A DNA stretch of 46,793 nt from Oceaniglobus roseus (GTDB taxonomy: Bacteria > Pseudomonadota > Alphaproteobacteria > Rhodobacterales > Rhodobacteraceae), in assembly GCF_002869745.1 (NCBI RefSeq), contig NZ_PNOS01000038.1, positions 1 through 46,793 of the forward strand, in the 5' to 3' direction. The position numbers and the translations under genes were made by a program. The notes below the pieces were generated by a model, which saw only the letters and a program-made list of their open reading frames with translations, ran no database searches and was not told where the DNA came from. This document shows positions 19,409-46,238 of this stretch, one piece after another (the first letter of the stretch is position 1; each line of letters starts with the position of its first letter).

Positions 19409-19422
19409 CCGAATGGGGGAGG
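19409..19422 (+). promoter_or_regulatory. Polysaccharide box, copy A
   Basis: CCGAATGGGGGAGG, 84 bases before the ATG of the pyruvyltransferase-family gene and pointing at it. It is one of five copies of the shared motif CCGA(A/T)(T/C)GG-N-G(G/T)AGG in this window. No CGTTTTG(G/C)CG element follows this copy. Confidence 0.5.
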
Positions 19423-19505
19423 GGCGGCACCGCGAAAACCGCACCGCCGGTTCGGGGTTCGGCGCATTGCTGGCAGGGAACGCAGCAACGGAAGGGGGCC
19501 GCCGC

Positions 19506-20807
19506 ATGAAGATCGCGCTGCTCGGCCAGTTCGGCTCCGGCAACTACGGCAACGACGGGTCGCTGACGGCGATGGTCGCCACGCTGCGGCGCATCGCGCC
19601 GGGGGCCGAACTGATGTGCATCTGTTCGGGGCCCGGCGACATCTCGCGGCGGCTCGGGATCGCGGCGGTGCCGATCGGCGCGCCGCCCCTCGCCTCGGCC
19701 GGGGCGCGGCGGCTGAACCGGCTGGCCCTGCGCATGCCGCAGCGCCTGCGCGGGCTGCGCGCGGCCCTGGCGGCCTGCCGCGGGGTGGATGCGGTCATCG
19801 TTCCGGGCACCGGGATCCTCGACGACTTCAACGACCGCGCCATGGGCTGGCCCTTCGTGCTGCTGCGCTGGTGCCTCGCCGCGCGGCTGTCGGGCGCGCG
19901 GCTTGCCTTCGTCAGCATCGGCGCGGGACCGATCCGCGGCGCCCTCAGCCGCCGCTTCCTGCGCTCGGCCGCCGCGCTGGCCGATATGCGCAGCTACCGC
20001 GACGAGGTTTCGCGTGACTTCATGGCCACGCTCGGCTTCGACACGACGCAGGAGCCGGTCTTTCCCGACCTCGCCCTTGGCCTGCCCGCGCCGGCGGTGG
20101 CACGCCCGCGGGGTTTTCCGCCGACCGTGGCGGTGGGGATGATGACCTATCGCGGCTGGCGCAAGGACGACCCCGGCGGCGAGGACCTGTTCCGCGCCTA
20201 CCTCGGGAAGATGGAGGACTTCGTGCGCTGGCTGATCGCCGAGGGCTGCCGCGTCCACCTGATCGGCGGAGACGACAGCGACGGGCAGGCCGTGGCGGCG
20301 CTCCTGGAGCGCATCGACGCCGACGGCACACTGCGCCGCGCGGGCGGGGTGAGCGTGGGGGCGGGCCGCAGCCTCGAGACGGTGATGGAGGAGCTGTCGC
20401 GGTGCGACCTCGTCGTCGCCTCGCGTTTCCACAACGTGCTCTGTGCGCTCCGGGTGCTGCGTCCGACGCTCTCCATCGGCTACGCCGACAAGAACCGCGC
20501 GCTGATGACGCAGGCGGGCCTCGGAGCCTTCTGCCTGGATATCGAGAGCTTCGAGGTGGAGACGCTGAAGGCGCGGTTCCGGCTGCTGCGCCGGGCGCAG
20601 GGAAACCACGCGGCCGAGATCGAGCGCTTCGTCGCCGGGGCGGCGGAGCGGCTGGCGGTTCAGGAAGAGGCGATCCGCAGCTTCCTCGACCGCGCGGCCG
20701 CGGGGCGCGGCGCGCCCGGTCAGCCCGCCGCGCTGCCCCGGCGTGCCAGCCTGGCGCGCAGCCCCTCGGTCAGCCGCGCCCGGGCATCGGGCCGCCGCAT
20801 CATGTAG
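19506..20807 (+). CDS. Polysaccharide pyruvyl transferase family protein
   Basis: 433 residues, PF04230-type (CsaB/WcaK-like), which transfers pyruvate from PEP as a ketal to a sugar or acts as a related glycan-modifying enzyme. The opening KIALLGQFGSGNYGNDGSL is diagnostic. The C-terminal half has LIGGDDSDG, the CDLVVASRFHN motif typical of the family, and TLSIGYADKNRALM. The ATG at 19506 follows GGAAGGGGG; the 31 codons before it in frame lie in the promoter region. Its last 88 bases overlap the 3' end of the convergent glycosyltransferase gene, an unusually long antiparallel overlap. Single-gene block preceded by polysaccharide box A. Confidence 0.88.
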   Translation: MKIALLGQFGSGNYGNDGSLTAMVATLRRIAPGAELMCICSGPGDISRRLGIAAVPIGAPPLASAGARRLNRLALRMPQRLRGLRAALAACRGVDAVIVPGTGILDDFNDRAMGWPFVLLRWCLAARLSGARLAFVSIGAGPIRGALSRRFLRSAAALADMRSYRDEVSRDFMATLGFDTTQEPVFPDLALGLPAPAVARPRGFPPTVAVGMMTYRGWRKDDPGGEDLFRAYLGKMEDFVRWLIAEGCRVHLIGGDDSDGQAVAALLERIDADGTLRRAGGVSVGAGRSLETVMEELSRCDLVVASRFHNVLCALRVLRPTLSIGYADKNRALMTQAGLGAFCLDIESFEVETLKARFRLLRRAQGNHAAEIERFVAGAAERLAVQEEAIRSFLDRAAAGRGAPGQPAALPRRASLARSPSVSRARASGRRIM

Positions 20808-21712
20808 TCGATCGGCGGCAGGAGCGCCATCTCGGGGGCCTTGCCGAAGGAATAGCGGATCAGGTCCCGCGCCCCCGGATCGCCCCTCGACCACGCCCCG
20901 AGCGCCGCCCAGTAGGCCCGCGCCGCGAAGCCGCGCCGCGCGAGGCGGCGCAGCCGCCCGAGTCCTTTCAGGGTGGCGGCATCGCGGGCGAAGAACGAAT
21001 CCGCCGCCGCCTCGGTCTGGCGGATGTGCAGCAGCTGGCGCGCCCGCAGGCTGCCCGAGCGGTTGTCCTCGTGGTTGCCGATCAGCCCCTGCACGTTGTC
21101 GAGCACCGCGACGTCCCCGACCAGCGCGAGGCGCAGCCAGAGCTCGTAGTCGTCGCTGTGGGGAAGCTCCTCGCGGTAGTGGCCCGCCGCCTTGTGGGCG
21201 CTGGTGCGGGTGACAAGGGTGGGGCCGGGGATCTGGAAGACGCCGAGGCGGCAGAACCCCTCGATGAAGGCGCGCCCGCTCATCCGGTGCCAGCGCGGCG
21301 CCTCGGGTCCGCTGTCGACCCGCGGAACGGGTTCGTCGCGCAGGAAGCCGACGTCGCGGCCGTAGCAGAAGGCGAGGCCCGGATCCTGCGCCAGCACCTC
21401 GCCCGCGCGGCGCAGGGCGCCCGGCGACAGCAGGTCGTCGGTGCACAGGATCAGGAAGCAGTCCGACCGCGCCCAGTCCACCGCCTCGTTGAACGAGGCG
21501 TGGGGCCCGCGATTGCGCGCGTGCAGCCGCAGCTCGATCCGGGGATCGGCGGCGGCGAGGTCGCGCGCGATCTCGGCGCTGTCGTCGGTCGAGGCGTTGT
21601 CGATGATCAGGATCCGCAGGGCCTCGACATCCTGCGACGCGACGCTCTCGACGCACGCGCGCAGGTAGCGGCCGTAATTGTAGTTCGGGATCGCCACGTC
21701 GAAGCTCGTCAT
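20720..21712 (-). CDS. Glycosyltransferase family 2 protein
   Basis: GT-A fold glycosyltransferase, 330 residues. It starts TSFDVAIPNYNYGRYLRACVESV, followed by LIIDNASTDDSAEI and the acidic metal-binding motif CTDDLLSPG (about residues 93-97), all typical of GT2. ELPHSDDYELWLRLALVG supplies the catalytic-base region. The ATG overlaps the flippase stop (ATGA). A longer frame running back to 25870 exists on this strand but crosses several real genes and is a shadow. Confidence 0.9.
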   Translation of the reverse strand: MTSFDVAIPNYNYGRYLRACVESVASQDVEALRILIIDNASTDDSAEIARDLAAADPRIELRLHARNRGPHASFNEAVDWARSDCFLILCTDDLLSPGALRRAGEVLAQDPGLAFCYGRDVGFLRDEPVPRVDSGPEAPRWHRMSGRAFIEGFCRLGVFQIPGPTLVTRTSAHKAAGHYREELPHSDDYELWLRLALVGDVAVLDNVQGLIGNHEDNRSGSLRARQLLHIRQTEAAADSFFARDAATLKGLGRLRRLARRGFAARAYWAALGAWSRGDPGARDLIRYSFGKAPEMALLPPIDYMMRRPDARARLTEGLRARLARRGSAAG

Positions 21713-23274
21713 CGGTCCGCTCCTGTGTTCAGCGCCGCGGGAAGGCTGTGGCCGGGCAGCCGCCGGCGCAGCAGGGCGAGGATCAGCGTCACCTCCAGCA
21801 GCAGCGGGTGGCGGGCCAGCTTCAGCCCGGCGAACCATCCCGCCGCCGCGAGGACGGTGCAGAGCGGCGCCTCGGCCAAGGTCGGCGACAGCCCGTGGCC
21901 CGCCAGCAGCGTGAACAGGCAGGGCGGCACGAGGGCCGAGGCGATCACCGCGACGCTGCGCCAGGTCGCCTCGGCCAGCGCGCGCCAGCCGAAGCCGATC
22001 CGCCGCTGCGCGGCGCGCAGGGACAGGACGGCATAGACGGGCAGGGTGAAGAACTGGCTTGCCGCCATGGCGATCAGGCCGAAGAAGCTTGCCCCGACCA
22101 TCACCGAGGCGCCGAGCAGGCGGCCGGTGAGGCTCAGCACGAAGGCGTCGCGGTTGGCGCCGAGGGCGAAGAGGGTGGGGGAGGTGATGATCATCGGCAC
22201 CCAGAACATCGCCGCGAGCGTCATCAGCTGGAGCAGCGGCACCACCGTTTCCCAGCCCGGGCCGAGAGCCAGCTCGACCACGGGTCCGGCCAGCAGCGCG
22301 ACGAGGGCGAGGGCCGGGCAGTAGACGGCGGCGACATAGCTCAGCGCGTTCAGGTAGGCGGCGCGCGGGTCGCGCCCCTCGCGCACCTGCGCGGCGAGGG
22401 CGGGAAAGGCGAAGGCGAAGACGGCCGCCATCAGGAAGCGGTCGGGGATGCTGGCCAGCACGCTTGCCCGGCTGTACATGCCGACGGCGGCGGCGGGCAT
22501 CGTCCGGCCCAGCACCAGCTGCGGCAGCGATTCGTAGATCCGGTCGATGACGGTGATCGCCCCCTTGCTGCCGCCGAAGGCCAGCATCGCCCGCCAGGCG
22601 GCCAGCGACGGGCGCCGCGGCCCCCGCTGCGGGCCGTTCACCAGGCAGAAGGCGGCGCGCATCGCCGCGCCCGCGGCGTGACCCCAGGCGATGCTCATCA
22701 GCCCGAAGCCGGTGCCCGCAAGCCCCACGGTCACGCCGACCGTCGTCAGGGAGGCGGCGATGTTGACCCTTGCGAGGCGGTCGAAGGCCATCTCGCGGCG
22801 CAGCAGGGCCAGGGTCGGCGCCGACAGCGCGTCGGCCAGCCCGACGAGGCAGAGCACCCGCAGGAAGCCCGCGGCCTCGGGCGCGCCGTAGGCGTCGGCG
22901 ACCGGCCCCGCGAGAAGCGACAGCAGGGCGGCGATGGCGAGGCTCGACAGTGCCGCGACGGTGAAGGCGGTGTCGATGTCGCCGGGGGCGATCTCGGGGC
23001 GCTGGATCAGGAATTCGGCGCTCACGAACTCGCGCGCCGCGAAGGCGACGGTGAACACCCCGAGCCCAATGGCCGCGACGCCGATCTCGGCCGGGCCGAG
23101 CAGGCGCGAGGTCACGGCGATTCCGATCAGGCCGACGATGGCGACGACGTACTGTTCGATGTTCGCGAAGAAGAACGCCCGCCGCACGCCTGCTGCCCCC
23201 GATCCGGTCCCCGTCGCGGTGCGCGCGGGATGGGACCCGTCTATCAGGCCTCGCACGGCGCGCCCTTGCACCAT
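21709..23274 (-). CDS. Oligosaccharide flippase family protein (Wzx/RfbX-like)
   Basis: Polytopic inner-membrane protein of the MOP/PST class, about 12-14 helices, that would flip the lipid-linked repeat unit. It has GLIGIAVTSRLLGPAEIGVAAIGLGVF near the start and AFPALAAQVREGRDPR midway, both characteristic. The assigned ATG at 23274 gives 521 residues with about 27 non-membrane residues first; GAGG lies upstream. However this ATG sits inside a CCGAATGG element, and a GTG just before the codons for RRAFFFANIEQYVV (about residue 28) is preceded by GGGGGCAG, so the true protein may be shorter. Cotranscribed with the GT2 gene. Confidence 0.88.
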   Translation of the reverse strand: MVQGRAVRGLIDGSHPARTATGTGSGAAGVRRAFFFANIEQYVVAIVGLIGIAVTSRLLGPAEIGVAAIGLGVFTVAFAAREFVSAEFLIQRPEIAPGDIDTAFTVAALSSLAIAALLSLLAGPVADAYGAPEAAGFLRVLCLVGLADALSAPTLALLRREMAFDRLARVNIAASLTTVGVTVGLAGTGFGLMSIAWGHAAGAAMRAAFCLVNGPQRGPRRPSLAAWRAMLAFGGSKGAITVIDRIYESLPQLVLGRTMPAAAVGMYSRASVLASIPDRFLMAAVFAFAFPALAAQVREGRDPRAAYLNALSYVAAVYCPALALVALLAGPVVELALGPGWETVVPLLQLMTLAAMFWVPMIITSPTLFALGANRDAFVLSLTGRLLGASVMVGASFFGLIAMAASQFFTLPVYAVLSLRAAQRRIGFGWRALAEATWRSVAVIASALVPPCLFTLLAGHGLSPTLAEAPLCTVLAAAGWFAGLKLARHPLLLEVTLILALLRRRLPGHSLPAALNTGADR

Positions 23275-23290
23275 TCGGGCGCGACCTCGA

Positions 23291-23304
23291 CCGAATGGCG
23301 GAGG
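23291..23304 (+). promoter_or_regulatory. Polysaccharide box, copy B
   Basis: CCGAATGGCGGAGG, embedded in CTCGACCGAATGGCGGAGG (23286-23304), 51 bases upstream of a near-identical copy C. It points at galE. A CCATTCGG octamer at 23271-23278 forms an inverted repeat with it. Confidence 0.55.
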
Positions 23305-23341
23305 CGGGGTGGCGCGGGGCGGATCGGCCGGGGGGGCTCGA

Positions 23342-23373
23342 CCGATTGGCGTAGGGCGCTGTTCGTTTTGGCG
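23342..23373 (+). promoter_or_regulatory. Polysaccharide box, copy C, with -35-like element
   Basis: CCGATTGGCGTAGG (23342-23355) is followed 8 bases later by CGTTTTGGCG (23364-23373), whose TTGGCG resembles a -35 hexamer. The arrangement matches copy D closely. The box is 95 bases before the galE start. No AT-rich -10 is evident 16-18 bases further on. Confidence 0.55.
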
Positions 23374-23449
23374 ACGCGATCCCCGTGCCGCGCCGGGACA
23401 GCCTGCAGGGAACGCCCCAGCAACCCCGCGCCACGAGGGAGACGCGCCG

Positions 23450-24598
23450 TTGAACGCACCCGGACCCATCCCCCCGAAGATCCTCGCCACCGGCGGCGCG
23501 GGCTATATCGGCTCGCACGTCGTGATCGCGCTGCTCGAACGCGGCTTCGACGTGGTCGTTCTCGACGATTACAGCAACTCCCACGAGGAGGCGGCGCGGC
23601 GGATCAACCGGCTGTCCCGCGGGCGGCGCGCCCGGTTCCTGCGCGGCGACGTCTGCAACGCGGCGACGCTCGAGGCGCTTTTCCGCGCCCACCGGTTCGA
23701 CGCCGTGGTGCACTTCGCCGGGCTTAAGGCGGTGGCCGACTCCGTCGCCCGGCCGGAACACTACTACGGCGTCAACATCGCCGGGGCGGCCTGCCTCTTG
23801 GCGGCCATGGCGCGGCACGGGGTCGAGCGGCTGGTCTTTTCGTCCTCCGCCACCGTCTATGGCCTGGCGGACACGGTGCCGATCCCCGAGACCGCGCCGC
23901 TGCGCCCCGCCAATCCCTACGGGCGCACCAAGCACATGATCGAGACGATGCTGGCCGACGTCGCGCGGGCCCGACCGGGCAGCCGGACTGTGATGCTGCG
24001 CTACTTCAACCCCGTCGGCGCGCATCCGAGCGGGCTGATCGGCGAGGATCCGGTGGGCGAACCTGCCAACCTGTTCCCGCTGATCGCGCGCAGCGTGCAG
24101 GGGGGCGGCCGGCCGCTTTCCGTCTTCGGTACCGACTACGACACGCCCGACGGCACCTGCATCCGCGACTACATCCATGTCGAGGACCTGGCCGAGGGGC
24201 ATGTGGCCGCGCTCGACAAGCTGCTTGCGACGGACCTGGCGCGCGGGGAAGCGCTGCCGGTGAACCTCGGGGTCGGGCGGGGCGTCAGCGTGCGCGAGGC
24301 GATCGCCGCCTTCGAGCGGGTCTCGGGGCAGCAGGTGCGCACGGTGGAGGCTCCGCGCCGACCCGGCGACGTGGCCGAATGCGTGGCCGATCCCGCCCGT
24401 GCGATGAAGCTTCTGAACTGGCACCCGCGCCGCGACCTCGACGCCATGTGCCGCGACATGTGGCGCTGGCGGCTGCTGAACCCCGACGGCTACCGCGGCC
24501 GCGAGGTTCTGGCCACCGCCGCCGACGAGATGCCACCGATTGCGCCGGTCCCCGCCGGGGAGGCGCAACAGACCTTCCGCGACGCCGTTCGCGGCTAG
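23450..24598 (+). CDS. galE: UDP-glucose 4-epimerase
   Basis: Extended short-chain dehydrogenase that interconverts UDP-glucose and UDP-galactose (or the GlcNAc/GalNAc pair). 382 residues from a TTG at 23450, chosen because GAGGGA lies 9 bases before it and no ATG exists near the fold start. Visible are the NAD motif TGGAGYIGSH (14-23), the catalytic Ser in SSSATVYG (131-138) and Tyr157/Lys161 in NPYGRTK. GALE-type LRYFNPVGAHPSGLIGEDP follows. A C-terminal tail of about 35 residues is longer than in classical GalE. First gene of a block with the next epimerase and the DUF4910 gene. Confidence 0.93.
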   Translation: MNAPGPIPPKILATGGAGYIGSHVVIALLERGFDVVVLDDYSNSHEEAARRINRLSRGRRARFLRGDVCNAATLEALFRAHRFDAVVHFAGLKAVADSVARPEHYYGVNIAGAACLLAAMARHGVERLVFSSSATVYGLADTVPIPETAPLRPANPYGRTKHMIETMLADVARARPGSRTVMLRYFNPVGAHPSGLIGEDPVGEPANLFPLIARSVQGGGRPLSVFGTDYDTPDGTCIRDYIHVEDLAEGHVAALDKLLATDLARGEALPVNLGVGRGVSVREAIAAFERVSGQQVRTVEAPRRPGDVAECVADPARAMKLLNWHPRRDLDAMCRDMWRWRLLNPDGYRGREVLATAADEMPPIAPVPAGEAQQTFRDAVRG

Positions 24599-24634
24599 AC
24601 CATCCACATTCACCAAACCGGAGATAACAGGCCC

Positions 24635-25687
24635 ATGCGCGTACTCGTCACAGGAAATCGGGGATATATCGGCTCGGTCATGACACCGCTGCTGGAGCGG
24701 GCGGGCCATGACGTGGTCGGGCTGGACATCGACCTCTACCGCGACTGCGCCTACGCGCCGGGCGGGGCGATGCCCGAGACACCGACGTTGAGGCAGGACG
24801 TGCGCGATGTCGACGTCGCGACGCTCCGAGGCTTCGACGCGGTGATCCACCTGGCCGCGCTGTCGAACGACCCGCTGGGCAATCTCGACGAGTCGGTGAC
24901 CTACGACATCAACCACAAGGGCAGCGTGCGGCTGGCCCGGATGGCCAAGGCGGCGGGGGTGCGGCGGTTCCTCTTCGCCTCGTCGTGCAGCAACTACGGC
25001 CGCGCCGGCGATGCGATGGTCGACGAGACGAGCCCGCTGAACCCGGTCACCGCCTACGGCCGGTCCAAGGTGATGGCCGAGCGCGACATCGCGAAGCTGG
25101 CGGATGCGGATTTCTGCCCGACCTTCCTGCGTCCGGCCACGGCCTATGGCCTGTCGCCGAAGCAGCGCTTCGACATCGTGCTGAACAACCTCACCGCCTG
25201 GGCCGTGGCCGAGGGCGTGATCCTGCTGAAATCCGACGGCAGCCCGCTGCGCCCCATCGTCCATATCGAGGACATCTCGCGCGTCTTCCTCGCCGCGCTG
25301 GAGGCGCCCGCGCCGAAGGTCTGGATGCAGGCCATCAACGTCGGCTCCTCGGGGCAGAACTACCGGATCCGCGACATCGCGCAGATCGTCGCCGAGACGG
25401 TGCCGGGCTGCCGGGTGGAATTTGCCTCGGACGCCGGGCCCGACACGCGCTCCTACCGCGTCGACTTCTCGAAGCTCGAACGCCTGCTGCCCGAGGCGCT
25501 GCCGAACTGGGACGCCCGGCTGGGCGCGCAGGAGCTGCTGACCGCCTACCGCAGGGCGCCGCTGAACGTGGCCGAGTTCGAGGGGCCGCGCTATCAGCGG
25601 GTCGGCTGCATCCGCAGGCTGATGGACACCGGCGTGATCGGGCCCGACCTGCGCTTCCGCGAAGCGGCCGAGCCGATCGCGGTCTGA
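24635..25687 (+). CDS. NAD-dependent NDP-sugar epimerase/dehydratase
   Basis: Extended SDR enzyme, 350 residues. It has the nucleotide motif [10 protein letters not shown] (5-14), the Ser region FASSCSNYG (114-122) and Tyr141/Lys145 in [23 protein letters not shown] is typical of a subgroup found next to cytidylyltransferase and sugar C-methyltransferase genes. It could be the 4,6-dehydratase, 4-reductase or epimerase of the pathway that uses the RfbF-like enzyme; sequence alone does not decide. It starts 36 bases after galE, and GGAGATAACAGG precedes the ATG. Confidence 0.88.
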
Positions 25688-25689
25688 GC

Positions 25690-27003
25690 ATGGACACGGC
25701 GACGTCGCCGGAGCGGCCGGAGGCCCGGTCCGATCCCGGCCTGGGCCAGCGGATCCATGCCACGGCGGCCGAGCTGTTCCCGATCTGCCGCAGCCTGGCC
25801 GGGCCCGGGGCCCGCGCCACGCTCGACGTGATCGCGCGGCGCATCGCGCTTCAGCGGGTCGAGACGCCAAGCGGCGCCTCGGCCCACGACTGGACGGTGC
25901 CGCGGGAATGGCAGGTCCGCGAGGCCTGGATCCGCGACCCTGACGGCCGGATCGTGGTCGATTTCGCCGAGAACAACCTGCACCTGCTGAACTACAGCGT
26001 GCCGTTCCGCGGGCGAATGACGCTCGACGCGCTGCGTCCGCACCTCTTCAGCCTGCCGGAGCAACCCGGCCTGATCCCCTATCGCACCGCCTACTGGGAG
26101 CCGCAGTGGGGTTTCTGCCTGCGCCACGACGACTTCCTGCGGCTGCCGGAGAGGGGCGAGTACGAGGTCTGCGTCGACACCGCCCATGTCGACGGCGCGA
26201 TGAGCCACGGCGAGCACGTGCTGCGCGGCGCGAGCGCGCGCGAGTTCGTTCTGACCACCCACATCTGCCACCCGTCGCTTGCCAACGACAACTGTTCGGG
26301 GATCGCGGTACTGGCCGAACTCGCCCGGACCCTGGCGGGCCGGCGGCTGAACTGGACCTACCGCTTCATCTTCGCCCCCGCCACGCTGGGCGCGCTCGCC
26401 TGGCTCGAGCGCAACCCCGACACGGTGGCGCGGATCGACCACGGGCTCGTCGTTTCCTGTCTCGGCGACGGGGGCGGGCCGAACTACAAGCGCAGCCGCA
26501 GGGGCAACGCGCAGATCGACCGGGTGATGGCCCATGTCCTTGCCCACGGGACGCCGCGGGGCGCGGTGCGCGACTTCGCGCCTGACGGATACGACGAGCG
26601 GCAGTTCTGCTCGCCCGGCTACGACCTGCCGTTCGGGCTGTTCCAGAGGAGCCGCCACGGGACGTTCCGGGAATACCACACCTCGGCCGACAACCTGGAT
26701 TTCATCCGGCCCGAACACCTGGCCGCTTCCCACGACATCCTCCTGGAGGCGATCGAGATCGTCGAGGCCGACCACGTGCCCCGCAACCTCTCGCCCATGG
26801 GCGAGCCGCAGCTCGGGCGGCGCGGGCTCTACACCCAGATCGGCGGCGCTGCGCAGACGGTGGACATCGAGTCGATCCGCTGGGTGCTAAGCCTTGCCGA
26901 CGGGCGGCACAGCCTTCTCGACATCGCCGAGCGGGCGGGCCTGAGGTTCCGCGCCGTCGCCGCGGCCGCCCGGCGGCTGCGCGAGGTCGGGCTGCTGGCC
27001 TGA
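25690..27003 (+). CDS. DUF4910 (M28-peptidase-like) protein with C-terminal winged helix
   Basis: 437 residues. A DUF2172/DUF4910 fold starts at IHATAAELFPICRSLAGPG; zinc-type ligands appear in THICHPSLANDNCSG (His191, His194, Asp200) and a late His in EYHTSADNLDF. The M28 general-base Glu region reads FAPATLG here, with no Glu, so ordinary aminopeptidase chemistry is doubtful. The last 55 residues (LLDIAERAGLRFRAVAAAARRLREVGLL) look like a winged helix-turn-helix. This family recurs in surface-sugar clusters beside sugar C-methyltransferases and PIG-L deacetylases, suggesting a step in an N-acyl or amide-bearing sugar. The ATG is 2 bases after the epimerase stop. Confidence 0.85.
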   Translation: MDTATSPERPEARSDPGLGQRIHATAAELFPICRSLAGPGARATLDVIARRIALQRVETPSGASAHDWTVPREWQVREAWIRDPDGRIVVDFAENNLHLLNYSVPFRGRMTLDALRPHLFSLPEQPGLIPYRTAYWEPQWGFCLRHDDFLRLPERGEYEVCVDTAHVDGAMSHGEHVLRGASAREFVLTTHICHPSLANDNCSGIAVLAELARTLAGRRLNWTYRFIFAPATLGALAWLERNPDTVARIDHGLVVSCLGDGGGPNYKRSRRGNAQIDRVMAHVLAHGTPRGAVRDFAPDGYDERQFCSPGYDLPFGLFQRSRHGTFREYHTSADNLDFIRPEHLAASHDILLEAIEIVEADHVPRNLSPMGEPQLGRRGLYTQIGGAAQTVDIESIRWVLSLADGRHSLLDIAERAGLRFRAVAAAARRLREVGLLA

Positions 27004-27024
27004 CGGGGCACACCCGAGGATTTC

Positions 27025-27576
27025 TCAGGCGATGTCGGCCGGGATCGTGTCGCGCAGGCAGGGCCAGCGTCGGTCCCGCTCGCTGAGCGTGGTCACGGGG
27101 GCGGGCCAGGTGATGCCGATGTCGGGGTCGTCGAACAGCAGGCCGTCGGCCGAACCCGGGGCATAGGCGCTGGAGATCAGGTAGTTCGTCGCCGCCTCGT
27201 CGGTCAGGGTCTGGAAGCCGTGGGCGAATCCGGTGGGAATGTAGAGCTGCCGCCCGTTCGCCGCGCTCAGCTCGAACGCGCGCCAGGCGCCGTAGGTGGG
27301 CGAGCCGCTGCGCAGGTCAACGGCCACGTCCCAGATCGCCCCGGCGACGCAGGACACCAGCTTGACCTCGGCATCCGGGGGGCGCTGGAAGTGCAGCCCG
27401 CGCACGGTGCCGCGGCCGACCGAGGTCGAGCGGCTGTGCTGCACGAAGTTCGTCTCGAGTCCGCGGGCGGCGAAGACCTCGGCGCAGAAGGTGCGCACGA
27501 AAGAGCCGCGGGCATCCCTGAACGGCTCGGGTTCGGTCAGCCACAGACCTTCGATTCCGGATTCTACGAACTTCAT
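27025..27576 (-). CDS. dTDP-4-dehydrorhamnose 3,5-epimerase family protein (RmlC-like)
   Basis: Cupin-fold sugar epimerase, 183 residues, full family length. It opens FVESGIEGLWLTEPEPFRDARG and carries the catalytic His62 in RGLHFQ, Lys72 and His119 in IPTGFAHGFQTL, all expected of an active RmlC. No rmlA, rmlB or rmlD is present in the window, so the substrate may be the CDP-linked 4-keto sugar of the neighbouring pathway and not dTDP-linked. Convergent with the DUF4910 gene (21 bases apart), and divergent from the methyltransferase gene. Confidence 0.9.
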   Translation of the reverse strand: MKFVESGIEGLWLTEPEPFRDARGSFVRTFCAEVFAARGLETNFVQHSRSTSVGRGTVRGLHFQRPPDAEVKLVSCVAGAIWDVAVDLRSGSPTYGAWRAFELSAANGRQLYIPTGFAHGFQTLTDEAATNYLISSAYAPGSADGLLFDDPDIGITWPAPVTTLSERDRRWPCLRDTIPADIA

Positions 27577-34931: not shown

Positions 34932-34935
34932 TCCC

Positions 34936-38246: not shown

Positions 38247-38357
38247 GTTGCGATTCCGCGTGTCCCGGGGCGCGGCAAGCCGCGTCAGCCGAAACCCGAG
38301 GGCAGAATGGGGCGAACCGTCGCAACCGGTCGGCCCTCCATTCGATGCCGGTTCTGA

Positions 38358-38388: not shown

Positions 38389-38464
38389 ATCCCCTTGGGG
38401 GCGGGATCGGCGGTCTTCTCGGTGCCGGGCCCGGACAGACCGGGCGGGGCCGGAAGGGACAGGC

Positions 38465-39712: not shown

Positions 39713-41007
39713 TGTCGGGCGATGTCGTGGTCAGCCAGCTTGGCGCCCGGATGCATTATGCCCTGCCGCGGATCCTGGCCTCGGCCGACCGGCTGGCGCG
39801 CTTCTACACCGACATCTGCGCCACCGACGCCCTCGCCGGGCGGCTCGGGCGGCTGCCTCTCGGCGGCGCGGCGGCACCGGCGCTGAAGCGGCTGGCGGGG
39901 CGGGTGCCCGAGGGCGTGCCGCCCGAGCGGATCGTCACCTTCCCACTGTTCGGCCTGCACTCGGCGCTGATCCGGCTGCGCAACCGCGACGATGCCGCGG
40001 TGACGCGCCACGCGCTCTGGGCGGGCGCGCGGTTTTCGTCGCTGGTGGCACGCCGGGGCTATGCCGGGGCCGCGGGGCTCTACACCTTCGCGGGCGACGG
40101 GCTGGAGCAGATCCGCGCGGCGAAGCGCCAGGGGCTCTGGGTGGCGGTCGAGCAGATGAACGCCCCGCGCGAGGTGCTGGACCGGCTGGTGAACGCCGAG
40201 CGGGCGCGCTTCCCGGAATGGGTTGAGGGGGTCGCCGACAACAGCGGCGTCGCCCGGGCCTTCGCCGCGCGCGAGCGGGCGGAATGGGCGCTGGCCGACC
40301 TCATCGTCTGCCCCTCCGAGTTCGTGCGCGAGGGCGTGCGCGACTGCGGCGGGCCGGTGGAGAAATGCGTCGTCGTGCCCTACGGGGTCGATCCCGGCGA
40401 AGCGCCGCCGGCGCGGCTGCGCGACCGCGGTCCGCTCAGGGTGCTGACCGCGGGCGCGCTGGGGCTGCGCAAGGGCACGCCCCACGTCCTGGCCGCCGCC
40501 GAGGCGCTGCAGGGCATCGCGACCTTCCGCCTCGTCGGGCCCACCGCGGTGCCCGGGGCGCAGCTCAGGCGGCTCAGGGTGGTGGCCGACGCGCCGGGCA
40601 TCGTGCCGCGCGGCGAGATGCGGGCACAGTATGCCTGGGCCGACGTCTTTTTGCTGCCCTCGGTCTGCGAAGGCTCGGCCACCGTCGTCTACGAGGCGCT
40701 GGCGGCGGGGCTGCCCGCCGTGGTCACCTCGAGCACGGGAAGCGTGGTGCGGGACGGGCAGGAGGGCTTCGTCACCGCCCCGGGCGACGGCGCGGCGCTG
40801 GTCGAGAAGCTGCGCCTGCTGGCGTCGGACCGCGACCTGCTGCGCAGCCTCGGCCGCAACGCCCGCGCGCGTGCGCTGGATTTCAGCGTCGAGCGCTACG
40901 GCGCGCGGCTGCTCGCGGCCCTGCCGGCGCCGTGCCAGCCGGTGCCGCTGCGCCCCCACGCCCCGCAGGCCGCGCGGGGCATGCGTCTGGAAAGGGTGAG
41001 CCCGTGA
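39709..41007 (+). CDS. Glycosyltransferase family 4 protein
   Basis: 432 residues, GT-B fold. The N-terminal half (VVVSQLGARMHYALPRIL) resembles glycosyltransferases with a long acceptor domain. The donor half has VLTAGALGLRKGTPHVLAAAEAL, TFRLVGPTAVPG and the E-x7-E site in PSVCEGSATVVYEALAAGLP. The ATG overlaps the preceding stop (ATGA); a second ATG three bases on is possible. Its last codons overlap the GTG of the next gene. Donor and acceptor unknown. Confidence 0.9.
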   Translation: MMSGDVVVSQLGARMHYALPRILASADRLARFYTDICATDALAGRLGRLPLGGAAAPALKRLAGRVPEGVPPERIVTFPLFGLHSALIRLRNRDDAAVTRHALWAGARFSSLVARRGYAGAAGLYTFAGDGLEQIRAAKRQGLWVAVEQMNAPREVLDRLVNAERARFPEWVEGVADNSGVARAFAARERAEWALADLIVCPSEFVREGVRDCGGPVEKCVVVPYGVDPGEAPPARLRDRGPLRVLTAGALGLRKGTPHVLAAAEALQGIATFRLVGPTAVPGAQLRRLRVVADAPGIVPRGEMRAQYAWADVFLLPSVCEGSATVVYEALAAGLPAVVTSSTGSVVRDGQEGFVTAPGDGAALVEKLRLLASDRDLLRSLGRNARARALDFSVERYGARLLAALPAPCQPVPLRPHAPQAARGMRLERVSP

Positions 41008-42185
41008 GGATCCTGCACGTCATCGCCTCGCTGGACCCCCGCCACGGCGGTCCGCAATGCGCCATCATCCACCACGCCGCCGCGCAGTCGCGGCTGGGGG
41101 CCGGGGTGGGAATCGCAAGCTATCTCGACCCCGCGGCGCGGGCCCGCGTGGCGCAGGAGGTCGCGCTGTCGCGGGAACGGTCTCAGGTCGTCATCCACAC
41201 CCTGCCGCGCGAGCGCCTGCTTGGCCGGCCGCTCGCGCTGTCGGCGGCGGCTTCGCTTCCCGCGTTGGTCGAGCGGGCGGACTGGGTTCACCTCCACGGC
41301 ATCTGGGAGCCGGTGCTGATCCAGGCGGCGCGGATCGCCCGCGCACGGCACGTCCCCTATTGCATCACGCCCCACGGGATGCTCGACCCCTGGAGCCTCA
41401 GCCAGAAGTGGCTGAAGAAGCGCATCGCGCTCCGTGCCACCCATCGCCAGATGATCGCGGGCGCGCGGTTCCTGCACACTCTGAACCGCGACGAGGAGGC
41501 GCTGATCGCGCCCTTGGGCCTGAACCTGCCGACCGTGACGGTGGCCAACGGCGTGAACCTCGGCGAGATCGGGGCGGGGGCCGTGCGCGGACGCTTCCGC
41601 GCCTCGCTGCCCGCGCTTGGAGACCGGCCCTTCGTGCTGTTCCTGTCGCGCCTGCACCGCAAGAAGGGGCTCGACGTGCTGGCCGCCGCCTTCGCCCGGC
41701 TCGCGCGTCGCCGCCCCGGCGTGGACCTGGTGGTGATCGGCCCCGACGGCGGGGCCGAGCATGATTTCCGCGCCCGCATCGCGGCGGCGGGCCTCGGCAG
41801 GCGGGTGCACCTCCTCGGTCCCGTCTTTGGGGCGCGCAAGTTCCAGGCGATGGCCGACTGCGCCTGCTTCTGCCTGCCGAGCCGCCAGGAGGGCTTCAGC
41901 ATCGCGATCACCGAGGCGCTGGCCTGCGGCGCGCCGGTCCTGATCTCCGAAGGCTGCCACTTCCCCGAGGTCGCCGCCGCCGGGGCGGGCCGGGTGCTGC
42001 CGCTTTCGCCCGAGGCCTTCGCGGCGGCGATGGAAGCGGTGCTCGACGATCCTGCCGGGGCCGCCGCCTTGGGCGCGGCAGGCCGGCAACTGGTCGAGCA
42101 GCGCTATACCTGGGCGATCACCGCGGCGCAGATGCTGGAGGCCTACGCCGCCTTCGGCCCGGGCCCCGCGGCGCGGGTGGCCTGA
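41004..42185 (+). CDS. Glycosyltransferase family 4 protein
   Basis: 393 residues from a GTG that overlaps the previous stop (GTGA), the only start fitting the fold: MRILHVIASLDPRHGGPQCAI. Motifs: HLHGIWEPVLIQAARIAR, ITPHGMLDPWSLSQKWLKK (found in colanic- and slime-type glycosyltransferases such as WcaC/ExpE-like), LFLSRLHRKKGLDVLAAAF and PSRQEGFSIAITEALACGAP with E-x7-E. It ends 16 bases from the convergent acyltransferase gene. Confidence 0.9.
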   Translation: MRILHVIASLDPRHGGPQCAIIHHAAAQSRLGAGVGIASYLDPAARARVAQEVALSRERSQVVIHTLPRERLLGRPLALSAAASLPALVERADWVHLHGIWEPVLIQAARIARARHVPYCITPHGMLDPWSLSQKWLKKRIALRATHRQMIAGARFLHTLNRDEEALIAPLGLNLPTVTVANGVNLGEIGAGAVRGRFRASLPALGDRPFVLFLSRLHRKKGLDVLAAAFARLARRRPGVDLVVIGPDGGAEHDFRARIAAAGLGRRVHLLGPVFGARKFQAMADCACFCLPSRQEGFSIAITEALACGAPVLISEGCHFPEVAAAGAGRVLPLSPEAFAAAMEAVLDDPAGAAALGAAGRQLVEQRYTWAITAAQMLEAYAAFGPGPAARVA

Positions 42186-42201
42186 AGGGCGGCTGCCGCG
42201 C

Positions 42202-42780
42202 TCAGTGGCGGCGGCGCTGGCGGAGCGCGCGGGCGGGGTTGCCGCCGTAGAGGATCCAGGGGTCGAGGTCCGACACCGCGACGCCGCGCGCGCCCAGCAC
42301 CGCGCCTTCGCCCACGTTCACGCCCGGTCCCACGAAGGCCTCGGCCGCGATCCAGGCGTCGCGGCCGATCCGGATCGGCCGGGGCCGCAGCGGAAAGGCC
42401 GGATCCTCGATGTCGTGGCCCGCGGCGCAGAGATGGCTGCGCTGCGACACGATGGCATGGGCCTCGAGCGTCACCGGCGCGACGTTGTAGCAGATCGCGC
42501 CGGGCCCGAGCGAGGCGTGGGCGCCCATGGTCAGATGCCCGGGCCACCAGATCCGCGCGCTGCCGCGCACCATGGCGGTCGGGTGGATCCGGGCGCCGAA
42601 GAGGGTCAGCAGGAATCGCCGGGGCGCCATCCATGAAGGCGGCGTCCAGGCGGCGCCCAGCCGCCAGGCCAGCCCCCAGAGCGCCCGCATCGCGCGCTGG
42701 CGCAGGGCGAAGGTCGGCCCCCCCTCGATCGGCAGCGGCGCCGCGGCGGGGGAGGGGCGGGCGAAGCGGGATTCCATCAT
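42202..42780 (-). CDS. Left-handed beta-helix acyltransferase (WcaF-like)
   Basis: 192 residues. A basic N-terminal helical part (RAMRALWGLAWRLGAAW) precedes hexapeptide repeats (IHPTAMVRGSARIWWPGHLTMGAHASLGPGA, then LEAHAIVSQRSHLCAAGHDI and VGPGVNVGEGAVLGARGVAV). SHLCAAGHDIEDP is close to the WcaF consensus, including the catalytic-type histidine. It probably O-acetylates a sugar of the repeat unit. The ATG overlaps the stop of the polymerase-like gene (ATGA). Confidence 0.9.
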   Translation of the reverse strand: MMESRFARPSPAAAPLPIEGGPTFALRQRAMRALWGLAWRLGAAWTPPSWMAPRRFLLTLFGARIHPTAMVRGSARIWWPGHLTMGAHASLGPGAICYNVAPVTLEAHAIVSQRSHLCAAGHDIEDPAFPLRPRPIRIGRDAWIAAEAFVGPGVNVGEGAVLGARGVAVSDLDPWILYGGNPARALRQRRRH

Positions 42781-44063
42781 GGCATGACCCTTGCTGAGGC
42801 GGGGAGAAGCAGGACGGCGGACGGCGGCGCCGCCCGCGCGGCGGGGCGCACCCGCGCCCAGGCGAAGACCGGGATGCAGAAGAACACCATGTGGGTCCAG
42901 GCCGACACCACCCAGTCGGTCGTGTGCGAGAAGGCGTGCATCGCCGGAACCGCGCTCAGCATGTAGAGGAACTGGCCCAGCAGCTGGCCCTCCATGGCCG
43001 AGTTCCACATCCGCCGCAGGACATAGGCGAGCAGGAGGAACTTCAGCGCGCCGGCGTACCAGAACGAGCGGAACGCATCCACCATGCCGGTCATCGTCGT
43101 GCCGGTCAGCGGGTTGAAGTCGCGCGGATCCTTCGGCGTGCGGAACATCAGCGCCTGCTTGAACTCGGAGCCGCCGATGCGCGAGGGCAGGTAGTTCCAG
43201 ATCACCTGGTTCCAGTGGAAGGCGCCGTAGTCGAACTGCCCGGTCCGGTCCGTCGCGCTGATCAGCAGGATGGCGTTGCGCAGCTCGGGACCGCCCTCCT
43301 GCAGCATCCGGGCGAAGTTGTCCTCGGCGTCGATCTGCGCGATCTCGTTCCAGACGACGCCGGAATGGGCGCGGGTGACATCGCGGTAGTCGGACATGCT
43401 GGTGGTGCCGATCACCGCGCCGACGAGGATCAGCGCCAGCGCGCCGCGCGGCATCGCCCACCGCCGCTGGAACCACAGCGACAGCGCCAGGATCAGCCAG
43501 AGCTCCGCCGCCTCGGCCCGCTTGCCCGTCACCAGGATCCGGTCGAGGTAGAAGACGAGGTCGAACAGGATCACCGCCAGCATCCACCGGCTGGGCCGCC
43601 AGGCGTAGAGGATGCTGGCGATCGCCAGGCTGTAGGTCAGCAGGCGGCCGAAGAAGAGATAGGTCACAGGCGCCCCGGAGATCTGCACGCCGACGATCTG
43701 CTCGCCCGGCAGCTGCGACAGCGCGTAGTAGAAATAGGCGCCGATCAGGGCGAACAGGGTGGCGACGATCTTCAGCCGCCCCTCGTCGAAGCCGATCCGC
43801 AGCGTCGCGAAGGGCGCACGCGAGGCCCGCCAGCCCAGCAGCGCACAGGCGAGGCAGAGACAGGCCATCAGCACCGTCTTGTCATATCCCCCCGGCGGCA
43901 GGAACGGCGCGTGCATCAGCCCCGGCAGCTGCGGCAGCACGAAGGAGACGACGATCAGCCCGCAGAGGAACGGGAAGGTATAGGCGTTCTGCCGGCGGGC
44001 GAACCCGTGCAGCAGGCACCCCGCCGCCATCACCGCCAGCAGCGCCGTCAGCACCTCGCTCAT
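42777..44063 (-). CDS. Polysaccharide polymerase-like integral membrane protein (Wzy candidate)
   Basis: 428 residues, about ten hydrophobic helices, with a larger hydrophilic loop near 220-310 (SMSDYRDVTRAHSGVVWNEIAQIDAEDN, then FNPLTGTTMTGMVDAF). Such a loop between late helices is typical of O-antigen ligase/Wzy-type polymerases, which otherwise share little sequence. I do not recognise a specific family member; the assignment rests on topology and on the locus having a flippase, a co-polymerase and an initiating transferase but no other polymerase. Upstream of and coupled to the acyltransferase. Confidence 0.8.
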   Translation of the reverse strand: MSEVLTALLAVMAAGCLLHGFARRQNAYTFPFLCGLIVVSFVLPQLPGLMHAPFLPPGGYDKTVLMACLCLACALLGWRASRAPFATLRIGFDEGRLKIVATLFALIGAYFYYALSQLPGEQIVGVQISGAPVTYLFFGRLLTYSLAIASILYAWRPSRWMLAVILFDLVFYLDRILVTGKRAEAAELWLILALSLWFQRRWAMPRGALALILVGAVIGTTSMSDYRDVTRAHSGVVWNEIAQIDAEDNFARMLQEGGPELRNAILLISATDRTGQFDYGAFHWNQVIWNYLPSRIGGSEFKQALMFRTPKDPRDFNPLTGTTMTGMVDAFRSFWYAGALKFLLLAYVLRRMWNSAMEGQLLGQFLYMLSAVPAMHAFSHTTDWVVSAWTHMVFFCIPVFAWARVRPAARAAPPSAVLLLPASARVMP

Positions 44064-44079
44064 GGCACGGCGGGCCCGC

Positions 44080-44913
44080 TCATATCGGCAGGCCCGCGTC
44101 GCGGCGCAACCGCTCGGCCGTCTTGATCTCGATCATCAGCTCGTAGCTCGCGATCATCCGGCAGTAGGTGTAGCCCGCCCAGCCGTCGAGGAAGCCGCCC
44201 CTGAGCAGGTACATGTAGACGAAGCGCAGCGTCGGGCGGAACGGCATCCGCGCGGCGATCGCCTTGATCGCGGCGCGCCGGTCCGCGCCCTCGGACGAGA
44301 CGAGGCCGCCCCAGTCGATCGGCGGGTGACGGCCCTTCGAGGTGGCCAGCGCCGCCTCCACGCTCGAATAGCGGTTGTGCTTGTCGTACCAGGCGCTCAG
44401 CCCCTTGTTGAAGCTGTAGTGGATGAAATGCGACTTCAGCCGTCCCGTGGGCCGGTCGCTGACGCAGCGCGAATGGACCTTGCGCTCGAACCGGACGAAC
44501 TCGGGGCGCACCATCCGCGTGATCCACGTCGGGTAGAGCGAGCTGCGGCGGATCCACCGGCCCATGAACATGTTCTTGTAGCGGGCCTGGAAGATCGCCT
44601 CGGGGCGGTCGGGATCGGCGGCGATGGCCAGCATCTCGTCGCGCAGGTCGTCCGGCGTGACCTCGTCGGCGTCGGGGGTATAGACCCAGGGGTGGCGGAA
44701 CTCGACCTGCGTCAGCCCGAACATCCGCTGGTCCAGCTCGCTCTCATAGCGGTGCTGGACGACGCGGGCCCCGGCGGCGCGGGCGATCTCGACGGTGCGG
44801 TCGGTGCTGAAGGAGTCGAGCACCACGATGTCGTCGCACCAGCCGAGCGAGGCGAGGCAGCGGCCGATGTTCTCTTCCTCGTTCAGCGTCATGATGAGGG
44901 TCGAGATGCTCAT
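44080..44913 (-). CDS. Glycosyltransferase family 2 protein (WaaE/KdtX-like)
   Basis: 277 residues, GT-A fold. ISTLIMTLNEEENIGRCLASLGWCDDIVVLDSFSTDRT is the standard opening of the WaaE-like group; PDADEVTPDDLRDEM carries the DxD and catalytic region, and KVHSRCVSDRPTGRLKSHFIHYSF the acceptor-side motif. WaaE transfers beta-1,4-glucose to lipopolysaccharide core heptose, but members in polysaccharide loci act on repeat units. The ATG overlaps the stop of the WecA-like gene. It ends 17 bases before the polymerase start. Confidence 0.92.
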   Translation of the reverse strand: MSISTLIMTLNEEENIGRCLASLGWCDDIVVLDSFSTDRTVEIARAAGARVVQHRYESELDQRMFGLTQVEFRHPWVYTPDADEVTPDDLRDEMLAIAADPDRPEAIFQARYKNMFMGRWIRRSSLYPTWITRMVRPEFVRFERKVHSRCVSDRPTGRLKSHFIHYSFNKGLSAWYDKHNRYSSVEAALATSKGRHPPIDWGGLVSSEGADRRAAIKAIAARMPFRPTLRFVYMYLLRGGFLDGWAGYTYCRMIASYELMIEIKTAERLRRDAGLPI

Positions 44914-46040
44914 CCCCGCTCTCCCTGTGCCGCGACCGCGGGTTCGCCGCCGACGGCGGCGACCTCGCGCGGCGCCGCGCGCCCGGTCAGGCGGGCCATG
45001 CGCTCGGCGATGCGCGCGCGGTCATCGGGGCGCACGGCCAGCACGAAGGCGGTGTGCAGCGCCAGCGGCACGGCCAGCCCGAACAGCATGACCACCGCCG
45101 GGACCTCGACGCGGACCCCGAGGTAGCCGATGCCGCCGCAGGCCGCCGAGGCGGCGGCGATGGCCGCGGTCGTCTTCGCCGGCGACAGGCCCATGTCCTG
45201 CAGCAGGTGATGCAGGTGCCAGCGGTCGCCCGAGAACGGGCTGCGGCGGGCGAGGGTGCGGCGCACGATCAGGCTGGCCATGTCGATCACCGGCAGGGCG
45301 ACCAGCCACAGCAGGGCGGGCAGCCCGCCCGGATGGGGCGACGCGGCGAGCGCCAGGATCAGGCAGGCCAGCGTCGCGCCAAGCGCGGTGCTGCCCGCAT
45401 CGCCGAGAAAGACCGAGGCGCGGGCCCGGAACGGGCTGCGCAGGTTGAACACCAGGAACCCGGCCGTCGCCGCCATCGCCAGGGCGGCATCGTTCGCGAC
45501 GTCGGCCCGGCCGACCAGGTCCGCGATGGCGATCAGCCAGACCAGGCTGCCGAGCGCCACCGACCCGGCCAGCCCGTCGACCCCGTCGATCATGTTGACG
45601 CCGTTCACCAGCCCGACCGCGAAGGCGAGGCAGATCGCCAGGCCGATCAGCCGCAGGGCGGGCAGCAGGTCGGGCGGCACCTCGCCGAAGCTCGGGAATC
45701 CGTAGGGCGTGAAGGCCAGCAGCATCGTCGCCGCGGCGACCTGCACCGCCAGCCGGTTGCGCGCCATCAGGCCAAGCCGGTCGTCGAGCGCCCCGAGCAT
45801 GGCGACGGTCCCGACCCAGAGACAGGCCGCCGGCGGCGCCGCGACGAGGCCCAGCACCAGGGCGAGGCCCAACGCCAGCACGATGGCTAGGCCGCCGCAA
45901 CTGGGCACCGCCGCACCGTGCAGCTTGATCGCGCCGGGCCGGTCCATCAGGCCCAGCCATGGTGCCAGCGGCCGGATCGCCTGGATCGCGATCAGCGTGA
46001 CGGAAAAGACAAGCAGAAGTTCCAGCGGTGCCAAGATCAC
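44910..46040 (-). CDS. WecA-like undecaprenyl-phosphate glycosyl-1-phosphate transferase (MraY/WecA family)
   Basis: Inner-membrane enzyme that starts the lipid-linked repeat unit by moving a HexNAc-1-phosphate onto undecaprenyl phosphate. 376 residues from a GTG at 46040 (GGTGGGGGAAC upstream). Family motifs are present: GALDDRLGL, NGVNMIDGVDGLAG, VFLGDAGSTALG and the basic DRWHLHHLL, spread over about 11 helices. There is no sugar-specificity clue beyond the family; GlcNAc is the usual one. The frame is open further upstream, but that part crosses the tRNA gene. First gene of the block WecA-like, GT2, polymerase-like, acyltransferase. Confidence 0.92.
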   Translation of the reverse strand: MILAPLELLLVFSVTLIAIQAIRPLAPWLGLMDRPGAIKLHGAAVPSCGGLAIVLALGLALVLGLVAAPPAACLWVGTVAMLGALDDRLGLMARNRLAVQVAAATMLLAFTPYGFPSFGEVPPDLLPALRLIGLAICLAFAVGLVNGVNMIDGVDGLAGSVALGSLVWLIAIADLVGRADVANDAALAMAATAGFLVFNLRSPFRARASVFLGDAGSTALGATLACLILALAASPHPGGLPALLWLVALPVIDMASLIVRRTLARRSPFSGDRWHLHHLLQDMGLSPAKTTAAIAAASAACGGIGYLGVRVEVPAVVMLFGLAVPLALHTAFVLAVRPDDRARIAERMARLTGRAAPREVAAVGGEPAVAAQGERG

Positions 46041-46224
46041 GTTCCCCCACCCGAAAGGTCTCGGTCGCCCCGGGGCGGCCCCCGGGGCCGCGGACGGGAC
46101 ATCGGCCCTGAGCAGACATCGGACCGACACCGTGACGCTGGCCCGGCCGGGCAGCGCGGCGGGATCATCAATTCGACCGGGCGGGTCTCCCGCGGGTGGG
46201 CATGGATGGCCGATGCAGGAGACC

Positions 46225-46238
46225 CCTCCGCCAATCGG
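46225..46238 (-). promoter_or_regulatory. Polysaccharide box, copy E
   Basis: On the minus strand CCGATTGGCGGAGG, pointing at the WecA-like gene, 184 bases before its GTG. It is part of a larger dyad: CGGTGA at 46236-46241 pairs with TCACCG at 46249-46254. An inverted repeat GGGTCTCC/GGAGACCC (46183-46190 and 46218-46225) lies next to it. It also lies 78 bases downstream of the tRNA 3' end. Confidence 0.5.

What the first reader, a model, noticed from the sequence alone, without database searches (positions are those of the whole stretch)
19409..46238. A five-copy 14-bp box shared by polysaccharide promoters: an undescribed regulon motif
CCGA(A/T)(T/C)GG-N-G(G/T)AGG occurs at 19409-19422, 23291-23304, 23342-23355, 38358-38371 (plus) and 46225-46238 (minus). 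All copies I found are non-coding, all lie upstream of genes of the polysaccharide locus, and all point at the downstream gene. For three of them (A, C, D) the distance to the start codon is 84-95 bases. Ten of 14 positions are invariant. None of the respiratory or transport genes has one. I do not recognise it as a known binding motif. This looks like the operator of one regulator coordinating scattered blocks.
Basis: partly seen in the sequence, partly recalled or inferred. Interest (0 to 1): 0.75.

Follow-up and report, generated by a model that had tools for sequence, protein, structure and literature searches.

The report
Conserved switch site for polysaccharide genes
A short mirror-symmetric DNA site sits in front of several sugar-polymer operons in this bacterium and in related bacteria, and is probably where one local regulator protein (a NarL-like LuxR-type protein encoded in the same cluster) docks to switch the whole cluster together.

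Summary
The five boxes are where stated, non-coding, and the only exact matches in the 4.41-Mb genome. Clustering inside the window alone does not beat shuffles; the case rests on genome-wide rarity and other genomes. Sulfitobacter sabulilitoris (G255) and a Qingshengfaniella plasmid (G099) carry the same cluster with boxes in orthologous gaps. Against G255, box A is the best-conserved 14-mer of its gap, B and D near the top, C and E not conserved. De novo search of three other genomes, without window DNA, finds an 18-bp dyad, CTACTCC-N4-GGAGTAG, beating 48 of 48 shuffles; its matrix ranks the window boxes 1, 4, 5, 16 and 17 of 46,776 positions. So the 14-mer is part of a palindromic operator. 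The likely reader is the LuxR-type protein at 31883: its recognition helix matches NarL's and the dyad resembles NarL sites. The Crp-type gene is broken in G255 and not beside LuxR in G099, though G099 has a distant Crp relative elsewhere. Binding, direction of control and signal are untested. New member of a known kind.

The parts
19404..19421 (+).
   Evidence: most conserved 14-mer of its gap against G255 (1 of 219 windows); CCGATTGGAGTAGG at the orthologous place in G255
23286..23303 (+). Operator B (box 23291-23304), between flippase (-) and galE-like epimerase (23450+, TTG start)
   Evidence: conserved in G255 (12/14; 5 of 162 windows as high); G255 has CTACGCCAAATGGCGGAG and G099 CTACGCCGAAAGGCGTAT in the same gap
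23337..23354 (+). Operator C (box 23342-23355), 51 bp downstream of B
   Evidence: rank 1 in the window for a matrix trained without window DNA; not conserved as a second copy in G255 (5/14)
38353..38370 (+). Operator D (box 38358-38371), between GDP-mannose dehydratase (-) and GT4 gene 38465 (+)
   Evidence: conserved in G255 (12/14; 8 of 215 windows as high)
46226..46243 (-). Operator E (box 46225-46238 -), upstream of the wecA-like gene 44910-46043 (-), between it and tRNA-Thr 46316-46391 (-)
   Evidence: rank 5 with the window-free matrix; not conserved in G255 (8/14, 111 of 264 windows as high)
27668..27685 (+). Candidate operator F1 in the rmlC / C-methyltransferase divergent gap
   Evidence: aligned G255 copy TGTCCCAAGGGCGTAG, but only moderately conserved for this gap (25 of 208 windows as high at best) and outside the top 20 of the window-free matrix; a box is also in the same gap of G099 (17002) and Shinella (25728, opposite orientation)
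27691..27727 (+). Candidate operators F2 (27691-27708) and F3 (27710-27727) in the same gap
   Evidence: ranks 12 and 20 with the window-free matrix; F1-F2 spacing 23 bp, as between G255 13716 and 13739
31883..32641 (+). LuxR/NarL-type regulator, proposed reader of the operators; degenerate receiver plus GerE HTH
   Evidence: Pfam GerE, best PDB match NarL with identical ESTVKVH, NCBIfam NarL far below cut-off, alignment A6, receiver weak
30726..31424 (+). Crp-type regulator, disfavoured as main reader
   Evidence: HTH_Crp_2; positional counterpart in G255 (39% identity) carries 3 in-frame stops; none beside LuxR in G099
15307..46043 (.). Polysaccharide cluster (glycosyltransferases, flippase, wzc/wza, sugar-nucleotide enzymes) served by the operators
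   Evidence: syntenic in G255 and, with rearranged ends, G099

Best explanation
The boxes are copies of an 18-bp dyad operator (relatives' consensus CTACTCC-GATC-GGAGTAG; in the window a well-kept right half GGNGKAG and a degenerate left half). A homodimer of the cluster's own NarL-like LuxR-type protein (31883-32641) binds it in the gaps between the operons, at A, C and D about 85-95 bp before the start codon, and sets transcription of the scattered blocks together. Shown by computation: the site, its conservation, and its enrichment near this regulator family. Inferred: that this protein binds it, that it activates rather than represses (about 2:1), and that its input is not classical phosphorylation, because the receiver domain is degenerate.
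For: Only 5 exact hits in the own genome, all here. Of 5 other genus members none has the LuxR gene at E up to 1e-10 and only G003 has a (single) box. Same cluster with boxes at orthologous gaps in G255 and G099. Window-free de novo dyad: LLR 41.4 against at most 32.7 in 48 shuffles; its matrix ranks A-E 16, 4, 1, 17, 5 of 46,776, and none of 1000 column-permuted matrices has all five as high (best worst-rank 96). A matrix from window and G255 sites, in 18 held-out LuxR loci, puts 14/23/41 of its top 20/40/80 windows between genes; permuted mean 5.3/9.7/19.2, 0 of 300 as high each time. Loci with other gene content have sites before wza, wzy and a sugar transferase gene. Wza loci of genomes without the LuxR gene have fewer hits (0.099 against 0.209 per kb at 10 bits). 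Reader: NarL is the best PDB match, ESTVKVH identical; TACTCCG fits 6 of 7 positions of TACYYMT; the Crp counterpart is broken in G255, none beside LuxR in G099, and G082 has only a distant match, E 6.7e-6.
Against: No binding, transcript or mutant data. Window-only clustering is not significant. C and E are not conserved in G255. The relatives' loci were chosen because they carry the LuxR gene, so their sharing it is by construction; only the wza control speaks to specificity. G099 has a 38%-identical Crp relative on its chromosome, and several other genomes have one too. Window left half-sites fit NarL's heptamer poorly (2-3 of 7; right halves 4-5). The looser 13-mer has 13 places in the own genome, 8 of them outside the window, and summed over five genomes it is no commoner than its reversed control (56 against 56); in G099 its one place in the cluster is coding. 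The strict palindrome is found in 7 of 14 LuxR genomes and 61 of 380 others, but the own genome has none and the listed places in LuxR genomes lie away from the LuxR locus. Of 12 family loci besides window and G255, four (G056, G292, G249, G097) have no intergenic hit at 11 bits and three (G096, G360, G267) have one. In loci from outside the family the enrichment is weaker. On median rank in the window at least one permuted matrix reached 4, better than the true 5. AT-rich words upstream of the Crp and LuxR genes also score high.
Confidence: 0.7

Rival explanations
1. The same operator is read by the Crp-type protein (30726-31424), alone or with LuxR.
For: The gene lies next to LuxR in the window and in a Mesorhizobium plasmid. 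G099 has a 38%-identical relative on its chromosome, and G390, G056, G243, G335, G267, G096 and G360 have relatives of 36-42%.
Against: The positional counterpart in G255 has 3 in-frame stops while boxes persist, its other Crp relatives being at most 26% identical; none beside LuxR in G099; G082 has only a match at E 6.7e-6. The dyad lacks Crp/Fnr half-sites (recalled TGTGA / TTGAT).
Confidence: 0.1
2. The operator is real but read by a regulator encoded elsewhere (another NarL-type protein), or by the winged-HTH of the DUF4910 protein 25684-27003.
For: Two further places with 33-35% identity to part of the LuxR-type protein exist in the own genome; the DUF4910 protein has an HTH_47 domain and is present in the G255, G099 and Shinella loci.
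Against: G082 has boxes and LuxR but no DUF4910 hit in the 40 kb read; sites are enriched in loci with this LuxR family over wza loci without it.
Confidence: 0.15
3. The boxes are chance or GC-rich low-complexity words gathered by eye.
For: Unguided clustering in the window is no better than shuffles; with 3 mismatches the pattern is rarer than in shuffles.
Against: Genome-wide uniqueness, conservation at orthologous gaps, recovery without window DNA.
Confidence: 0.05

Closest known systems
NarL/NarP operators of Escherichia coli (TACYYMT heptamers, 7-2-7 inverted repeats)
   Same: Dyad with two central bases between heptamers; TACTCC fits TACYYM; recognition helix ESTVKVH identical between NarL and the window protein. 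The heptamer is from a passage of PMC4886647; the 7-2-7 layout is recalled.
   Different: Seventh base G or A, not T; window left halves are degenerate; targets are polysaccharide operons; receiver domain degenerate.
VpsT and CsgD, LuxR-type biofilm-matrix regulators with non-canonical receivers (their biology is recalled)
   Same: GerE DNA-binding domain; both appear in the match lists.
   Different: Weak matches confined to the HTH (VpsT E 4.5e-4; CsgD model 30.9 bits, cut-off 250); nothing on c-di-GMP was tested here.
EpsA, XrtB/PEP-CTERM-associated LuxR-type regulator (TIGR03020)
   Same: LuxR-type HTH; by its name tied to exopolysaccharide genes.
   Different: 36.9 bits, cut-off 170; only the HTH matches.

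Membership tests
NarL/FixJ (GerE) type operator | Dyad of heptamers close to TACYYMT, two bases apart | tested here: inconclusive
   De novo consensus TACTCCG-AT-CGGAGTA fits 6 of 7 (0.8% of heptamers fit 6 or more); the five window sites fit 2-3 of 7 (left) and 4-5 of 7 (right)
NarL/FixJ (GerE) type operator | A GerE-domain regulator encoded with the targets | tested here: met
   31883-32641 has GerE, E 6.7e-15; 14 of 14 members of alignment A6 do
Canonical NarL/FixJ response regulator (protein 31883) | Receiver domain of normal sequence with phospho-acceptor Asp | tested here: inconclusive
   Response_reg not found in the window protein at E up to 1; weak in 10 of 14 members, best 0.0013. 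Structure prediction did not finish, so the Asp position was not mapped by a tool
E. coli NarL (equivalog) | NCBIfam NarL score above cut-off | tested here: not met
   69.7 bits, cut-off 250
Crp/Fnr operator | TGTGA-N6-TCACA or TTGAT-N4-ATCAA half-sites (recalled) | tested here: not met
   Neither half-site is in the consensus (read by eye)
NarL-type operator | Direct binding of the regulator | not testable with these tools
   needs gel shift, footprint or DAP-seq

The most novel reading that the evidence does not exclude
A portable regulon: a family of orphan NarL-like regulators with decayed receivers travels with polysaccharide clusters of quite different chemistry across Rhodobacterales and Rhizobiales, sometimes on plasmids, taking its own operator (CTACKCC-N4-GGMGTAG) along, so that such a cluster arrives pre-wired to one switch.
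Probability: 0.35. Interest if true: 0.6.

Novelty: new member of a known kind. Interest (0 to 1): 0.48.

Why it matters
It gives a concrete operator and a named candidate regulator for an accessory polysaccharide cluster, with regulator relatives in other alphaproteobacteria. The operator is short and the protein small, so one gel shift would test it; if right, it offers a way to find and predict co-regulated polysaccharide genes in other soil, marine and plant-associated bacteria.

Tried and rejected
Window-only clustering of 14-mers: no signal above shuffles. Strict palindrome over 394 family genomes: 68 with a match; 7 of 14 LuxR genomes against 61 of 380 others, but not at the LuxR locus in the places listed (the list was cut; the places in G255 and G099 were not shown), so no clean marker. 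Exact 14-mer over 394 family genomes: 171 with a hit; among the places listed I saw no cluster like ours, but the listing was cut short, and I did not check those places for a regulator. Crp-type reader: disfavoured as above. The high-scoring AT-rich words 30688, 31539 and 30675: set aside as probable composition effects, but autoregulation of crp or luxR is not excluded. Literature: nine answered searches showed in their listings no paper that I recognised as describing this motif or regulator; I opened one paper, PMC4886647, and saw two passages of it.

Choices that affect counts: the relatives' sites for the first matrices were picked by eye from matches with up to 3 mismatches; two weak G099 sites were left out. 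The matrix used 5 window and 5 G255 sites. The window-free matrix used 9 of the 10 best sites; I dropped the AT-rich G099 site at 3961 by eye. The tandem G082 sites 12886/12907 were not (their gap exceeded the 700-bp limit) nor in that matrix. Gene calls in relatives are my own script (a first version failed on GC-rich DNA), poor for Ochrobactrum (45% called intergenic), which inflates the background in the outside-family set. Loci of G249 and G097 were only 3.6 kb. From 209 plasmid records with a LuxR match I read 6 regions. The wza control set was 25 of 30 returned loci (5 dropped because their genome has the LuxR gene); LuxR absence there means no match at E up to 1e-30.
Full report
Observation. 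The five boxes are present as described in gaps between genes that I called by codon-position GC and ORF structure. Downstream genes: polysaccharide pyruvyl transferase (A, 19506+), an epimerase (B and C, 23450+), a GT4 glycosyltransferase (D, 38465+), and a wecA-like transferase (E, 44910-46043 -, below the model's cut-off). A search of the whole own genome (4,408,274 bp) with the exact pattern returns these five and no other; the reversed control returns two. A looser 13-mer, CCRAWNGGNGKAG, returns 13 places in the own genome, five here; in G255 5 places, two in the cluster; in G082 10, two in the locus; in G335 15, one in the locus; in G099 13, one in the cluster and that one coding. Reversed controls give 8, 9, 15, 12 and 12 in the same order, so the word is not enriched genome-wide; what counts is where it falls. 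Since the pattern was drawn from the five boxes, the informative part in the own genome is its absence elsewhere. An unguided count of similar 14-mers within the window's gaps is not above shuffles, so the proof has to come from other genomes.

Other genomes. The cluster is accessory: of 6 genus genomes only the own one has the LuxR-type gene at E up to 1e-10, and only one other, G003, has a single box. In 394 family genomes (393 genera) 14, the own one included, have a LuxR homologue at E up to 1e-30.

Orthologous gaps. G255 has CCGATTGGAGTAGG before the pyruvyl transferase (A), CTACGCCAAATGGCGGAG between flippase and epimerase (B/C), CAGATCGGATGAG between gmd and GT4 (D, two mismatches), and two weaker sites 23 bp apart between rmlC and the methyltransferase (F). 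G099 has CTACGCCGAAAGGCGTAT in the B/C gap and TTCCTCCGTTTGGAGTAG in the F gap, with only weak candidates in the A gap. Aligned with G255, box A is the single best-conserved 14-mer of its gap (1 of 219), for B 5 of 162 windows are as high, for D 8 of 215; C (124 of 162) and E (111 of 264) are not conserved, and the F candidates are only moderately so (25 of 208 at best). The best copies in relatives are more palindromic, which shows the likely true form of the element: an 18-bp dyad.

Independent recovery. I ran a dyad-constrained motif search on 25 gaps (7,006 bp) from G255, G099 and G082 with no window DNA. It returned CTACTCC-GATC-GGAGTAG with a log-likelihood ratio of 41.4; 48 dinucleotide shuffles reached at most 32.7. 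A matrix from nine of its ten best sites, scanned over the window, ranks the boxes 16, 4, 1, 17 and 5 (A to E) of 46,776 positions; none of 1000 column-permuted matrices has all five as high (best worst-rank 96), though on the median rank a permuted matrix reached 4 against the true 5. Among the higher ranks are AT-rich words upstream of and at the start of the Crp gene and upstream of LuxR (30688, 31539, 30675, 30734), which I take to be composition effects but cannot exclude as real sites. The same matrix in 16 further LuxR-homologue loci puts 15 of its top 20 and 24 of its top 40 windows between genes (permuted mean 6.6 and 12.7; 1 of 200 and 0 of 200 as high). A matrix from window and G255 sites gave 14, 23 and 41 intergenic in the top 20, 40 and 80 of 18 held-out loci, 0 of 300 permuted matrices as high; in the 12 family loci alone 12, 21 and 35 (1, 0 and 0 of 300), in the six others 11, 18 and 26 (6, 7 and 78 of 300). 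In 25 wza loci of genomes without this LuxR gene, hits at 10 bits or more number 8 in 80.7 kb, against 115 in 550 kb of held-out LuxR loci: a twofold difference.

What the sites sit before. In G082, a locus with different genes, a pair of sites 51 bp apart (30715/30766, the spacing of B and C) lies between wza and wzy, and a pair 21 bp apart (12886/12907) lies before a gene with hexapeptide and oxidoreductase domains. In G335 a site lies between wza and wzy and another 47 bp before the LuxR gene itself; in G243 one lies before a sugar transferase gene. In Shinella, from another order, sites lie before an aminotransferase (13.7 bits) and an epimerase (9.8 bits), 84 bp from each start, and in the rmlC/methyltransferase gap (10.6 bits), the last two below the 11-bit line used elsewhere. 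Of the 12 family loci besides window and G255, four have no intergenic hit at 11 bits and three have one.

Which protein. The window protein's nearest solved relative is NarL (E 7.1e-14), with ESTVKVH of the recognition helix identical; in the 14 aligned homologues this stretch varies only at S, which is N in two. NarL's heptamer is TACYYMT (passage in PMC4886647); the de novo half-site TACTCCG fits 6 of 7 positions, as do 0.8% of heptamers, and the two half-sites are two bases apart. The Crp-type neighbour's counterpart in G255 is broken by three in-frame stops, none lies beside LuxR in G099, and G082 has only a match at E 6.7e-6, while boxes and LuxR remain. Against this, G099 has a 38%-identical Crp relative on its chromosome. 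The winged-helix DUF4910 protein has no match in the G082 region. The relatives' loci were found through the LuxR gene, so their sharing it is no independent evidence; the absence of the other candidates there, and the wza control, are.

Mechanism. I propose that a LuxR-type dimer binds the dyad, with the better half-site gene-proximal (5 of 5 in the window), and that paired sites (21-23 or 51 bp apart) allow two dimers to bind on one face of the DNA. Sites 85-95 bp before start codons suit an activator upstream of a promoter, but repression is not excluded. The receiver domain is degenerate (no Pfam receiver match in the window protein, weak matches in 10 of 14 members), so abundance or a ligand is a likelier input than phosphorylation; this is inference.

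Verdict.

Noticed in passing
L055:16754-17419 (G255, Sulfitobacter sabulilitoris): The positional counterpart of the Crp-type gene carries three in-frame stops while the neighbouring LuxR-type gene is intact; a Mesorhizobium plasmid keeps both genes as a pair (L109 17516-19436).
   Followed up: partly
window 19422-19445, 23355-23375, 38371-38390: A short A/T tract (AAAA or TTTT) lies 10-16 bp downstream of boxes A, C and D in otherwise very GC-rich DNA; at D the stretch TTTGCCGATC is also conserved in G255. Possibly a promoter or UP-like element.
   Followed up: no
window 19470-19490 and 23400-23425: The leaders downstream of A and C share GCAGGGAACGC followed within 0-3 bases by AGCAAC, about 50 bp after the box.
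   Followed up: no
window 25684-27003: A DUF4910/DUF2172 protein with a C-terminal winged helix (HTH_47) belongs to this cluster in G255, G099 and Shinella too; its role in polysaccharide synthesis is unclear.
   Followed up: no
window 38338-38345 and 23271-23278: An inverted half-site CCATTCG lies 20 bp upstream of boxes D and B; at D the stretch CCTCCATT-GA is kept in G255, though the 14-mer there is not outstanding.
   Followed up: partly
L105 (NZ_CP042262.1 155000-190000): The syntenic cluster lies on a 449-kb plasmid in Qingshengfaniella, which fits horizontal spread.
   Followed up: no
L107:30420-31067: The Shinella locus has a second GerE-type regulator beside the aminotransferase gene.
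   Followed up: no
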